Notes under the pieces: model-generated
What the model saw: the letters and a program-made list of their open reading frames with translations, nothing else
The model's database searches: none
What the model was told of the DNA's origin: nothing
NCBI GenBank assembly: GCA_902627565.1
Contig: CACOJM010000001.1
Location: 1 to 64,000 of the forward strand
From: an uncultured Pelagibacteraceae bacterium
Lineage (GTDB): Bacteria; Pseudomonadota; Alphaproteobacteria; Pelagibacterales; Pelagibacteraceae
Reading direction: 5' to 3'
DNA: 64,000 nt
Position numbers and translations under genes: made by a program
Shown here: piece after piece, positions 21,451 to 25,705 of the stretch
Position numbering within the stretch: the first letter of the stretch is position 1
How the letters are laid out: the number at the start of each line of letters is the position of its first letter

Positions 21451-22458
21451 ATGAATATTGCAATTGTAGGAGCAACAGGAAATGTTGGAAGAAAAACTTT
21501 AGAAGTTCTTGAAAAAAAAGAACTATCTATTGATAATCTATATTTAATTGCATCATCAAAAAGCGCAGGTAAAAAAATTGGTTTTAAAGGTAAGGACTAT
21601 GAAGTTTTTGATTTGGAAAACTTTGATTTTTCTAAAGTAAAAATTGCTTTTTTTGCGGCTGGAGGAAAAATCTCAGAAAAATTTGCTAATAAAGCCTCGA
21701 AACATTGTTTAGTAATTGATAATTCAAGTTTTTATAGAATGGATCCAGATGTACCTTTGATAGTCCCACAAGTTAATTCAAATCATTTAGATGGAATAAA
21801 AAAAAATATTATTGCTAATCCTAATTGCTCAACAGCTCAATTAGTGATTGCATTAAAGCCTTTGCACGATCTGTTTGTAATCAAAAGAGTGGTAGTCTCA
21901 ACATATCAATCAGTTTCAGGAGGCGGTAAAGCACCTATGGATGAATTGATTGAACAAACAAAATTAGTTTTAGATGGTAAAAAAGTAAAATCAAAAAATT
22001 TTACAAAGCAAATAGCTTTTAATGCCATTCCTCATATAGATGAATTCTCAAATGATGGTTATACAAAAGAAGAGTTGAAAATGACTAATGAGACAAAAAA
22101 GATTTTAGATGATAAAATTGACTTAACAGCAACATGTGTGAGATTACCAATATCTGTATCACATTCAGAGTCAGTCAACTTACAATTTGAAAAATCTTTT
22201 ACTCTTGAAAAAGTTAGAAGTGCATTAAATAGTTTTGAGGGTTGTAAAGTTATTGATAAGAGAATTAATGGTGGATACTTCACACCATTAGAAGCTGAGG
22301 GAAAAAACGAAACATTTATCTCAAGGATAAGAGAGGATAAGACTGTGAAAAATGGATTAAATTTGTGGATTGTTTCAGATAATCTTTTACGAGGAGCGGC
22401 TTTGAATGCAGTGGAAATAGCTGAGACATTAATTAAAAATAATTTTTATGGAAAATAA
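21451..22458 (+). CDS. asd: Aspartate-semialdehyde dehydrogenase
   Basis: Reduces aspartyl phosphate to aspartate semialdehyde, the branch point to lysine/DAP, threonine and methionine. GATGNVG (about 7-13) binds NADP, and the nucleophile is Cys126 in ANPNCSTAQ. The 335-residue length is typical of the shorter bacterial form. Its 3' end overlaps sdhC by 11 bp, which places an amino acid gene at the head of the succinate dehydrogenase operon. Confidence 0.96.
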   Translation: MNIAIVGATGNVGRKTLEVLEKKELSIDNLYLIASSKSAGKKIGFKGKDYEVFDLENFDFSKVKIAFFAAGGKISEKFANKASKHCLVIDNSSFYRMDPDVPLIVPQVNSNHLDGIKKNIIANPNCSTAQLVIALKPLHDLFVIKRVVVSTYQSVSGGGKAPMDELIEQTKLVLDGKKVKSKNFTKQIAFNAIPHIDEFSNDGYTKEELKMTNETKKILDDKIDLTATCVRLPISVSHSESVNLQFEKSFTLEKVRSALNSFEGCKVIDKRINGGYFTPLEAEGKNETFISRIREDKTVKNGLNLWIVSDNLLRGAALNAVEIAETLIKNNFYGK

Positions 22459-22831
22459 ACCACCATTATCTCCTCATATTCAAATTTATAAATGGCATAT
22501 CTCATCGTTAGTATCTATTTCACATAGAATAACAGGTATAATAAACATAATTGCAATTACATTTATTTGTTTATTAGCTTCATTACTTGTTCTTGGTGAA
22601 AGTAATTACGAATATATCTATTTATTCTTAAGTTCGCTGATTGGTAAATTTACAATCTTAGGACTCACATGGTCTTTTTCTTTTCAAGCCTTAAGCGAAA
22701 TAAGACATTTAATCATGGATCTAGGTTATGGATTTGAACTGAAGACAACAAAAATAACTGGACTAATAGTTATATTTGGTTCTGTTATTTTAACAGTTAT
22801 TTTTTATCTAATTGGAAAAAATTTTTTTTAA
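22448..22831 (+). CDS. sdhC: Succinate dehydrogenase cytochrome b556 subunit SdhC lacking the haem histidine
   Basis: Membrane anchor of complex II that forms part of the ubiquinone site. The signature LSPHIQIYKW (about 7-16) and the SISHR motif (Ser23 and Arg27, equivalents of the E. coli quinone-site Ser27 and Arg31) are present, with three hydrophobic helices. The helix II segment reads FQALSEIRHLIMD, where the family normally has HxxxGIRHxxxD: Gln80 replaces the haem-ligating His (E. coli His84), while the second His (here 87) remains. It overlaps sdhD by one base (TAATG). Confidence 0.93.
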   Translation: MENKPPLSPHIQIYKWHISSLVSISHRITGIINIIAITFICLLASLLVLGESNYEYIYLFLSSLIGKFTILGLTWSFSFQALSEIRHLIMDLGYGFELKTTKITGLIVIFGSVILTVIFYLIGKNFF

Positions 22832-23154
22832 TGATTAACGCAACTAAAAAATGGATCTTTTTAAAAGTTAGTGGAGCGGTATTAGTTCCACTAATGATAT
22901 GGTTTATCTTAAACTTTATAACAATTTATGATCAAGATTATTTTATTGTTTTAAATTTTTTCATAAATCCACTATCTAAGTTTTTATTTAGTCTTTTCAT
23001 TATCAATGCATATTTTTTTTCAGCCTTGAGTATTAGTGAGGTTTTTGAGGATTATATTAAAAATGATAAAATCAAAAATGTCGCAAATAGACTTTTATAT
23101 CTATCAGCAGTGGTAATTCCCTCAATTACAATTATATTAATAACTAGGTTATGA
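22831..23154 (+). CDS. sdhD: Succinate dehydrogenase membrane anchor SdhD without histidines
   Basis: Second membrane anchor of complex II, 107 residues with three hydrophobic helices. The quinone-site Asp-Tyr pair is kept in VFEDYIK (Asp74, Tyr75). Twelve residues before this Tyr, where E. coli SdhD has the haem ligand His71, the sequence has Phe63; the protein contains no His at all. Together with Gln80 in SdhC this leaves no bis-His haem b site. It overlaps sdhA by 4 bp. Confidence 0.9.
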
Positions 23155-24926
23155 GTTCATACAAAATTATAGATCATGAATATGACGTAGTAGTCTTAGG
23201 TGCTGGTGGCTCTGGTTTAAGAGCTGCTGTTGGTTTAAGTGAGGCAGGGTTAAAGACAGCATGTATTTCAAAAGTTTTTCCTACAAGAAGCCATACCTCT
23301 GCAGCGCAAGGAGGTATTTCAGCCGCTCTTGGTAATATGGGAGAAGATGACTGGCGTTGGCACATGTATGATACCGTTAAGGGCGCTGATTGGTTGGGAG
23401 ATCAAGATAGTATTGAATATCTTTGTAAGGAGGCACCAAAAGCAGTTATTGAATTAGAGAAATATGGGGTGCCTTTTAGTAGGACAGAGGATGGAAAAAT
23501 TTATCAAAGGCCATTTGGTGGTATGACTAAAAATTATGGTAATGGAATTGTACAAAGAACCTGTGCAGCTGCTGATAGAACTGGTCATGCAATTTTACAT
23601 ACTTTGTATGGACAAGCGCTAAAACATAAAACAGAATTTTTTATTGAATATTTTGCTTTAGATTTATTAATGAAAGATGGAGCTTGCAAGGGACTAATAG
23701 CCTGGAATTTAAACGATGGGACTATTCATAGATTTAGAGCTCATACTGTAATAATTGCTACAGGTGGTTATGGTAAAGTTTATTATTCAGCAACATCTGC
23801 TCATACTTGTACGGGAGATGGTAATGCAATGGTATTAAGAGCCGGGCTACCTTTACAAGACATGGAATTTGTTCAATTTCATCCAACAGGAATTTATGGA
23901 CATGGAACATTAATAACAGAGGGTGCCAGAGGTGAAGGAGGATATTTGACAAATTCAAAGGGTGAGAGATTCATGGAAAGATATGCACCTAATGCAAAAG
24001 ATTTGGCTTCAAGGGATGTTGTCAGCAGATCAATGTCAATTGAAATTAACGAAGGAAGAGGTGTTGGAAAAGATCAAGATCATGTTCATTTAAATTTAAG
24101 TCATTTAGATAAAGATATTATTGAAAGTAGATTGCCCGGAATAACTGATGCAGCAAGATTATTTGCAAATGTGGATGTTACTAAAGAACCCATTCCAGTT
24201 GTACCAACTGTTCATTATAATATGGGAGGTATTCCAACAAATTATAAAGCAGAAGTTTTAACTGTAAACGGTTCAGAAAAAACTGTACCAGGATTAATGG
24301 CAATTGGAGAGGCTGCATGTGTATCAGTTCACGGAGCCAACAGACTGGGTTCAAACTCACTTATTGATTTGGTAGTCTTTGGAAGAGCTGCTGCAAAAAG
24401 AGCAGCTGAACTTATCAAACCAGGAACACCACATGAAGAATTAAATGAATTAGAAACTCAAAAATGTTTGGATCGGTTTGATAAAATTAGAAATGCTAAA
24501 GGTGATATTGGGACTGCAGAATTAAGACAGACAATGCAAAAAACAATGCAATCTAAATGTGCAGTTTTTAGAACTGAAAAAACATTGAAAGAGGGTGTAG
24601 ATCAAATTAAGAAGACTTATGATGGACTAGATTCTATATCAGTAAAAGATAAATCATTGATATTTAATACTGATCTAGTTGAAACTTTAGAATTTGATAA
24701 TTTAATAAGACAAGCAGTCGTAACCGTCGATTCTGCATATAACAGAAAGGAAAGTAGAGGAGCACATGCTAGGGAAGATTATCCTAAAAGAGATGATCAA
24801 AAATTTATGCAACATACCCTTGCTTGGTGTGATGGAAAAAATACTAAAATAGCTTATAGAGAGGTGCATAAATCTACTCTAACAAATGAAGTTCAGTATT
24901 TTCCACCTCAGGAAAGAGTTTATTAA
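23151..24926 (+). CDS. sdhA: Succinate dehydrogenase flavoprotein subunit
   Basis: Oxidises succinate to fumarate and passes electrons to SdhB. The N-terminal dinucleotide fold [12 protein letters not shown] (about 15-26), the FAD-linking His in [11 protein letters not shown] (about 46-56), and the substrate residues in HPTGIYGHG and [10 protein letters not shown] are all intact, so the catalytic subunit is normal despite the odd anchors. The 591-residue length is standard. It shares one base with sdhB (TAATG). Confidence 0.98.
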
Positions 24927-25705
24927 TGGTTCAAATAAATTTGCCTAAAAATTCTGAAATTAAAAAAGGCAAATATTTTAAAGACAAAACTGGTTCAAAA
25001 AATTTAAGAAAAATAAATATTTATAGATGGGACCCGTCTTCTGGAGAAAATCCCAGAGTTGATACTTATGAAGTTGATATGGACAATTGTCCCTCAAAAG
25101 TACTAGATATTTTAAATAAGATTAAAAATGAGATAGATCCAACGTTAGCATATAGAAGATCTTGTGCACATGGAGTTTGCGGTTCGTGTGCGATGAACAT
25201 GGCTGGAAAAAATGGTTTAGCCTGTACCACTCCACATGCCGATATTAAGGGTGATATTGATATTTATCCATTACCCCATTTAAAAGTAAAAAAAGATTTA
25301 ATTGGCGATTTAGATGGTTTATACAAACAATATCAATCAATCGAACCCTGGCTAAAATCAAATTCTAAATCTGAAACAAAAGAAATAATTCAATCGAAAG
25401 AAGAGAGGGCAAAATTAGATGGCGCTTATGAATGTATAATGTGTGCATGCTGCTCAACCTCATGCCCAAGTTATTGGTGGAATGGTGATAAATATTTAGG
25501 TCCAGCAGTTTTATTGCAAGCATATAGATGGATTGTCGATAGTAGAGATGAGGAAAGAAAAGCAAGATTAAAAAAAGTTGCTGATGAACTTAAGCTCTAT
25601 CGTTGTCATACAATTCTTAACTGTACAAGTGCATGCCCAAAAGGTTTAAATCCCGCAAAAGCTATAGCTGAAATAAAAAAAATGTTAGCAACTGCCAATA
25701 TTTAA
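24926..25705 (+). CDS. sdhB: Succinate dehydrogenase iron-sulfur subunit
   Basis: Carries the three Fe-S clusters that link flavin to quinone. The [2Fe-2S] cysteines lie in [13 protein letters not shown] and the following GLACTTP (about 73-98); the [4Fe-4S] and [3Fe-4S] ligands in [16 protein letters not shown] (about 171-186) and [11 protein letters not shown]. The quinone-pocket Pro and Trp in CPSYWWN are present. The 259-residue length is normal. A 42-bp gap then separates it from mmsA. Confidence 0.98.

What the first reader, a model, noticed from the sequence alone, without database searches (positions are those of the whole stretch)
22448..23154. Complex II anchors have lost both haem b ligands
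In SdhC the helix II motif that normally reads HxxxGIRH has Gln80 at the first His, and SdhD has Phe63 twelve residues before the conserved Asp-Tyr pair, exactly where E. coli has His71; SdhD contains no histidine at all. The quinone-site residues (SdhC Ser23/Arg27, SdhD Asp74/Tyr75, SdhB Pro/Trp) are kept. Losing both ligands together while keeping the quinone pocket suggests a functional succinate dehydrogenase without haem b. Haem-free complex II relatives exist (E. coli fumarate reductase), so it is chemically plausible, and it would save iron in an open-ocean cell.
Basis: partly seen in the sequence, partly recalled or inferred. Interest (0 to 1): 0.75.

Follow-up and report, generated by a model that had tools for sequence, protein, structure and literature searches.

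The report
Haem-free complex II in SAR11 bacteria
In this genus of SAR11 ocean bacteria the respiratory enzyme succinate dehydrogenase appears to have lost its haem group step by step and to hold its two membrane subunits together without it, much as was recently seen in baker's yeast.

Summary
In detail: SdhC (22448-22831) has Gln80 and SdhD (22831-23154) has Phe63 at the two haem b ligand positions. It is a trait of the genus: 34 of 34 scored genomes have SdhC Gln, 32 of 34 lack the SdhD His. (1) The ligands were not lost together: in two related genera the SdhD His is gone in 34 of 34 genomes while SdhC His is kept in 16. (2) The Gly one helix turn after the SdhC ligand goes with the ligands: 201 of 204 scored genomes either keep both His and this Gly, or lack a His and the Gly too. 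In the window's family it became Glu (70 of 70). (3) Haem-free complex II of otherwise type-C build is known from yeast, where Glu at the matching Gly of the partner subunit replaces a propionate contact (PMC13066397). Quinone-site residues are invariant and both genes are under purifying selection, so this is very probably a working haem-free succinate dehydrogenase. Loss occurred at least twice in Pelagibacterales and also in a few other Alphaproteobacteria. Absence of haem is inferred from sequence, not measured; iron saving was not tested.

The parts
22448..22831 (+). sdhC, cytochrome b556-type membrane anchor of complex II, 127 aa, haem ligand lost
   Evidence: TIGR02970 115.9 bits over cut-off 52.3; PF01127 97.8 bits over 25.8
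22685..22687 (+). codon of SdhC Gln80, at the column of E. coli SdhC His84 (haem ligand)
22697..22699 (+). codon of SdhC Glu84, at the column of E. coli Gly88, one helix turn from the ligand
22514..22528 (+). SdhC Ser23-Arg27 (E. coli Ser27-Arg31), quinone-site and propionate-side residues, kept
22706..22708 (+). codon of SdhC His87 (E. coli His91, a propionate contact in E. coli), kept
22831..23154 (+). sdhD, second membrane anchor of complex II, 107 aa, no histidine
   Evidence: TIGR02968 48.2 bits over 41.8; PF01127 26.8 bits over 25.8
22864..22866 (+). codon of SdhD Lys12, at the column of E. coli Arg20 (propionate contact)
23017..23019 (+). codon of SdhD Phe63, at the column of E. coli SdhD His71 (haem ligand)
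23029..23031 (+). codon of SdhD Ser67, at the column of E. coli Gly75
23050..23055 (+). SdhD Asp74-Tyr75 (E. coli Asp82-Tyr83), quinone site, kept
23151..24926 (+). sdhA, flavoprotein of complex II, 591 aa
   Evidence: TIGR01816 957.4 bits over 727.35
24926..25705 (+). sdhB, iron-sulfur subunit of complex II, 259 aa; CPSYWW and YRCH motifs kept
   Evidence: NF004616 355.8 bits over 228; alignment with mitochondrial SdhB

Best explanation
sdhCDAB of this SAR11 genome encodes a working succinate:quinone oxidoreductase of type-C build whose haem b has been lost. Shown: both axial His are gone; the small Gly on the same face of SdhC helix II is Glu; the quinone site is intact; the genes are under constraint; haem-making and other haem enzymes remain in the genome. 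Inferred: electrons run FAD, three Fe-S clusters, ubiquinone, a route on which haem does not lie in E. coli; the two anchor subunits are held together by protein-protein contacts in place of the haem. The likeliest new contact is SdhC Glu84 with the basic SdhD residue Lys12 (E. coli Arg20), which normally binds a propionate. This would be the counterpart, across the pseudo-twofold axis of the SdhC/SdhD pair, of the Glu112(Sdh4)-Arg97(Sdh3) bond that replaces a propionate contact in haem-free yeast complex II. Loss was stepwise: SdhD His and SdhC Gly first, SdhC His to Gln later and several times.
For: Ligand loss fixed in the genus, 34 of 34 for Q84 and 32 of 34 for H71. Co-loss of Gly88 with the ligands: in genomes read by handle, 113 keep all three, 88 lack a His and the Gly, 3 are exceptions (n = 204); the named records, which partly overlap, give 14 and 66 with no exception (n = 80). 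Glu88 in 70 of 70 ligand-lost genomes of family f1, while the ligand column itself drifts (F, Y, N, H), as expected if the Glu matters and the ligand no longer does. Stepwise states H-E-F then Q-E-F on the trees. Ten haem-facing side chains sum to 1341 A3 in ligand-lost and 1198 A3 in ligand-kept Pelagibacterales (n = 86 and 40). dN/dS far below 1 in 17 pairs: sdhC 0.04-0.25, sdhD 0.05-0.38. Quinone-site residues invariant. Precedents: E. coli haem-free variant keeps significant activity and supports growth on succinate (PMC3290573, introduction); wild-type yeast complex II has no haem in cryo-EM maps and replaces propionate contacts with Arg97-Glu112 and others (PMC13066397); Tetrahymena complex II has no haem b (PMC10227065, passages). 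Haem is still made and used: ferrochelatase, COX1 and cytochrome b in the own assembly.
Against: No spectrum, structure or cofactor measurement exists here. A paper title on E. coli (seen only in a reference list) reports retention of haem in axial-ligand mutants, so loss of ligands alone does not prove loss of haem. Lys at the Arg20 column is not specific: 11 of 128 ligand-kept records have it, and an independent-pairs test of R20 against ligand loss gave nothing. The same test for Gly88 had only 3 supported pairs, all concordant, too few for significance. The Glu-Lys contact rests on pseudo-symmetry; no model of the SdhC-SdhD pair was made. The summed side chains fill only part of a haem-sized cavity, and f2 genera g17 and g18 show no filling.
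Confidence: 0.85

Rival explanations
1. Haem b is still bound in the pocket, held by van der Waals and propionate contacts (SdhC Arg27, His26, His87) with water, Gln80 or no residue as ligand.
For: Propionate-side residues R31 and H91 are kept in 156 and 155 of 156 ligand-lost records; haem retention in E. coli axial-ligand mutants is reported in a paper title (reference list).
Against: Those residues also build the quinone site, so their conservation has another cause. Phe in place of one ligand, Glu in place of the porphyrin-facing Gly and larger pocket side chains all crowd the haem. Yeast complex II with one His left, a Tyr and a Glu at the matching Gly is haem-free.
Confidence: 0.1
2. The anchor genes are decaying or the complex serves another purpose than succinate oxidation by ubiquinone.
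For: The anchors evolve faster than sdhA and sdhB, and some fairly complete SAR11 genomes show no complex II match at all.
Against: dN/dS is far below 1; all four genes are intact and in order; quinone-site residues are unchanged in 156 of 156 ligand-lost records; it is the only complex II found in this assembly.
Confidence: 0.03
3. Haem was lost under selection to save iron in open-ocean cells, rather than by relaxed constraint in small streamlined genomes.
For: Open-ocean SAR11 lives with little iron (general knowledge); loss recurs in the order.
Against: Not tested: no habitat or iron data were compared. Genera g3, g5, g6, g8, g9, g12 of the same family keep both ligands in all 37 scored genomes. 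Haem is 1 of about 10 Fe in the complex (recalled cofactor counts), and other haem enzymes are kept.
Confidence: 0.25

Closest known systems
Saccharomyces cerevisiae complex II (PDB 9QDL/9QDM; PMC13066397, passages and sections 8 and 13 read)
   Same: Type-C build, intact quinone site, no haem; ligand lost in the SdhD-type subunit; Glu at the ligand+4 position in place of Gly
   Different: In yeast the SdhC-type His156 is kept and bonds Tyr108 of Sdh4, and the new Glu112 is in Sdh4; in the window both His are gone and the Glu is in SdhC. Whether Glu-Lys replaces a propionate contact here is inferred.
E. coli succinate dehydrogenase SdhCDAB (PDB 1NEK, 2WDQ; PMC3290573, abstract, sections 3 and 12 and passages read)
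   Same: Fold of both anchors, operon order, quinone-site residues
   Different: E. coli has bis-His haem b (SdhC His84, SdhD His71), Gly88 and Arg20; the window has Gln, Phe, Glu and Lys there
E. coli quinol:fumarate reductase, type D
   Same: Two membrane subunits, no haem (PMC10238741 passages); SdhD model matches 1KF6 chain D at Z 9.6
   Different: Different subfamily: the window's SdhA is TIGR01816 sdhA_forward over cut-off, and its hit to the fumarate reductase SdhA model TIGR01176 is below cut-off; PF02313 hits SdhC only below cut-off
Tetrahymena thermophila complex II (PMC10227065, passages read)
   Same: Wild-type succinate dehydrogenase without haem b
   Different: Greatly enlarged complex with cardiolipin in the haem position; authors place it in type D

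Membership tests
Succinate dehydrogenase (complex II), SQR | sdhCDAB operon with SdhA of the forward subfamily, SdhB and two 3-helix anchors | tested here: met
   anchor folds match E. coli SQR
Succinate dehydrogenase (complex II), SQR | ubiquinone-site residues SdhC Ser/Arg, SdhD Asp-Tyr, SdhB Pro/Trp/His | tested here: met
Succinate dehydrogenase (complex II), SQR | succinate:ubiquinone activity | not testable with these tools
   needs biochemistry
Type C complex II in the strict sense (one haem b) | one His ligand from each anchor | tested here: not met
   Gln80 and Phe63; genus-wide
Type C complex II in the strict sense (one haem b) | haem b present | not testable with these tools
   absence inferred from pocket residues
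Haem-free type C as in S. cerevisiae | type-C anchors with ligand loss | tested here: met
   against PMC13066397
Haem-free type C as in S. cerevisiae | new Glu at ligand+4 bonding a propionate-side Arg/Lys of the partner | tested here: inconclusive
   Glu present, but in SdhC rather than the SdhD-type subunit; contact not modelled
Type D (E. coli fumarate reductase) | membership of the fumarate reductase subfamily | tested here: not met
   best SdhA model is TIGR01816; TIGR01176 537.6 bits against cut-off 932.7; PF02313 21.7 against 25

The most novel reading that the evidence does not exclude
Haem b has been dropped from complex II repeatedly in Alphaproteobacteria by a repeatable route: one His lost, the porphyrin-facing Gly of one anchor filled by an acidic or larger residue, then the second His lost. 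SAR11 uses Glu in SdhC, pairing with Lys/Arg of SdhD, which is the mirror across the pseudo-twofold axis of the yeast solution with Glu in the SdhD-type subunit; three other alphaproteobacterial lineages (G312, G362, G337) carry the yeast-side Glu. Complex II of a dominant ocean lineage would then be haem-free.
Probability: 0.5. Interest if true: 0.72.

Novelty: new variant of a known kind. Interest (0 to 1): 0.6.

Why it matters
What the haem of complex II is for is a long-standing question: it is off the electron path in E. coli, and removing it artificially leaves activity. SAR11 offers a natural series inside one order: both ligands, one, or none, with the pocket remodelled in parallel. 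Comparing close relatives that have and lack the haem would show what it does (stability, quinone affinity, radical protection) without artificial mutants. It also means that textbook and model-based assignment of one haem b to every SAR11 complex II, for instance in iron budgets, is probably wrong for this genus. The yeast cryo-EM authors call for subdividing type C (PMC13066397, discussion); bacteria would belong in that subdivision.

Tried and rejected
Other haem ligand: SdhD has no His; the remaining conserved SdhC His26 and His87 correspond to E. coli His30 (packs on a pyrrole) and His91 (propionate contact), not to iron ligands. Second complex II in the genome: PF01127 gave only SdhC and SdhD, PF13085 one match, in an 84.66% complete assembly. 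Loss of haem synthesis as cause: ferrochelatase is present.

Number of losses: a FastTree SdhA+B tree put g1 beside haem-ligand-keeping g3/g6/g8, but under a mixture model the clade g1+g2+g4 is not rejected and scores 8 log units higher (AU 0.655; 0.662). SdhC+D supports g1+g2+g4 (100/99) and rejects g1+g3/g6/g8 (AU 0.0001); without 81 of 221 pocket-helix columns the grouping stays (SH-aLRT 97) but the rival is not rejected (AU 0.09). RpoB rejects g1+g14+g2+g4 (AU 2e-11, 28 genomes). I suspected that the one g6 genome G046 was misbinned, because without it RpoB is undecided; five g6 genomes together then again stood beside g1+g14 (SH-aLRT 100, 34 genomes), so my suspicion was wrong. Hence the genes conflict: one loss with exchange of sdhCD between genera, or two losses. 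I leave this open.

Lys20 as a marker of loss: not supported by independent pairs and found in ligand-kept records. Residue-by-residue match of yeast Lys73 to SdhD Lys12: not settled; neither SAR11 nor general alphaproteobacterial SdhD profiles hit the yeast Sdh4 chain, and the fold alignment gives ranges only.

Literature: searches listed, as far as titles, abstract starts and the passages I opened show, no paper on haem loss in SAR11 complex II; the library holds only open-licence papers, so this is weak evidence of novelty. The 2007 E. coli haem-free paper and the 2010 ligand paper are not held. PMC5210497 was opened for passages and had none of the terms; PMC5953543 passages were irrelevant.

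Full report
The window's genome is a SAR11 relative: its nearest named SdhC neighbours are records titled Pelagibacteraceae (L138, 88% identical). The operon asd-sdhC-sdhD-sdhA-sdhB is intact. SdhC and SdhD are recognised as succinate dehydrogenase anchors above curated cut-offs.

Survey. PF01127 searches gave matches in 92 of 118 genomes of the family, 128 of 147 of the order and 154 of 190 of the class, with overlap. I did not read all of them. I read 209 genomes by handle and 80 named loci (one search kept the best 80 of 583); the two sets overlap in part. 284 of these 289 records could be scored; G077, G168, G365, G289 and G396 could not. The 78 scored genomes outside the order were the 30 best matches, 40 chosen for small genome or low score, and 8 of the 11 lowest, so they are not a random sample.

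States, by E. coli columns SdhC 84, SdhC 88, SdhD 71. Own genus g1: Q-E in 34 of 34; SdhD F in 29, Y in 3, H in 2. g14: Q-E-N (1). g2: H-E-F in 2, Q-E-F in 14. g4: H-E-F in 14, Q-E-F in 4. g7: Y-E-N (1). Genera g3, g5, g6, g8, g9, g12: H-G-H in 37 of 37. Second family f2: g16 H-G-H in 4; g15 Y-C-H in 12; g17 Y-S-H in 3; g18 N-D-H in 1. Outside the order 73 of 78 are H-G-H; the others are G370 H-G-Y, G312 Y-S-H, G362 Y-G-H, G337 Y-E-H and G273 H-D-H. So both ligands are the rule in the class, and loss is a feature of SAR11 with a few scattered cases elsewhere.

Order of events. Because g2 and g4 include H-E-F genomes, loss of the SdhD His and the Gly-to-Glu change came before SdhC His-to-Gln, which then happened in g2 and g4 as well as in g1. 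In g1 the SdhD column has gone on changing: Phe, Tyr, Asn, and His again in G167 and G199, whose partner is Gln. The Glu by contrast is fixed in 70 of 70 ligand-lost genomes of family f1. A site that is free at the old ligand and fixed at the new Glu is what one expects when the haem is gone and the Glu has taken on a job.

Number of losses. If lost ligands are not regained, families f1 and f2 lost them separately, since each has genera with both His; G030 (g7, one genome 68% complete) would be a third. Whether g1+g14 and g2+g4 share one loss is open because the genes disagree: SdhC+D joins them (100/99), RpoB separates them, SdhA+B allows either. Exchange of sdhCD between genera, or convergence, would reconcile this.

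Why the haem is probably gone. His84, Gly88 and His91 in SdhC, and His71, Gly75 and Gln78 in SdhD, are spaced i, i+4, i+7, so the Gly lies on the haem side of each helix (inference from spacing; His91 and Gln78 contact propionates in E. coli, PMC3290573). Of 204 genomes read by handle, 113 keep both His and Gly88, 88 lack a His and Gly88, and 3 are exceptions. The phylogenetically corrected test has only 3 supported pairs, all concordant, and cannot be significant. Ten haem-facing positions, taken from the residues listed in PMC3290573 plus the ligands and Gly, sum to 1198 A3 in 40 ligand-kept and 1341 A3 in 86 ligand-lost Pelagibacterales; the rise is seen in f1 and g15 but not in g17 and g18, so for f2 a Tyr-His or other ligated haem stays possible.

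Why it still works. sdhC and sdhD dN/dS is 0.04-0.25 and 0.05-0.38 in 17 pairs, higher than sdhA (up to 0.028) and sdhB (up to 0.069) but far below 1; several pairs have small dS, so single values are rough. SdhC S27, R31 and SdhD D82-Y83 are unchanged in all 284 scored records. SdhB keeps its quinone-site motifs. In E. coli the haem is off the path from FAD to quinone, and a haem-free variant keeps significant activity and supports growth on succinate (PMC3290573).

Precedent and mechanism. The 2026 yeast structure (PMC13066397) shows wild-type complex II of type-C build without haem: Sdh4 Tyr108 stands at the ligand position and bonds Sdh3 His156, and the propionate contacts are replaced by Arg97(Sdh3)-Glu112(Sdh4), Asp167(Sdh3)-Lys73(Sdh4) and Tyr157(Sdh3)-Thr84(Sdh4). 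Glu112 is the residue four after Tyr108, that is, the column of SdhD Gly75. SAR11 has its Glu at the matching Gly of SdhC. In E. coli SdhD Arg20 and SdhC Arg31 are equivalent across the pseudo-twofold axis (PMC3290573), so the SAR11 Glu84 would face SdhD Lys12 as yeast Glu112 faces Sdh3 Arg97. This is my inference; that Arg97 is the Arg31 column was not checked. Three other Alphaproteobacteria (G312, G362, G337) carry Glu at the SdhD Gly75 column together with SdhC Tyr84, which is the yeast-side choice.

What is new. Haem-free complex II is known (E. coli fumarate reductase, ciliates, Perkinsus, yeast). My literature searches listed none for SAR11 or for repeated loss in Alphaproteobacteria, in a library limited to open licences. 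I therefore file it as a new variant of a known kind. The absence of haem is a strong inference, the replacement contact a moderate one, and the iron-saving motive is untested.

Noticed in passing
L345 (G312), L346 (G362), L347 (G337), L348 (G289), L349 (G370), L350 (G273): Alphaproteobacteria outside SAR11 with altered haem sites: SdhC Tyr84 with SdhD Glu75 (G312, G362, G337), SdhC Tyr84/Thr88 with SdhD not scored (G289), SdhD Tyr71 (G370), and both His kept but Asp at both Gly columns (G273).
   Followed up: partly
L112 and L113 (G167, G199): Inside the window's genus two genomes have His at the SdhD ligand column with Gln at the SdhC one, perhaps a reversion.
   Followed up: no
G018, G193, G121, G212, G214: SAR11 genomes of 92-98% estimated completeness show neither PF01127 nor PF13085 matches; assembly gaps or true absence of complex II was not decided.
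   Followed up: partly
sdhCD loci of genera g1, g2, g4: SdhC+D and RpoB trees conflict on whether these genera belong together, which may point to exchange of sdhCD between genera.
   Followed up: partly
L262 (G378), L266 (G387), L292 (G257): Both haem His are kept but SdhC His91 and Asp95 are replaced, an unusual change beside the quinone site.
   Followed up: no
22448-22458: The end of asd (21451-22458) overlaps the start of sdhC by 11 bases, suggesting translational coupling.
   Followed up: no
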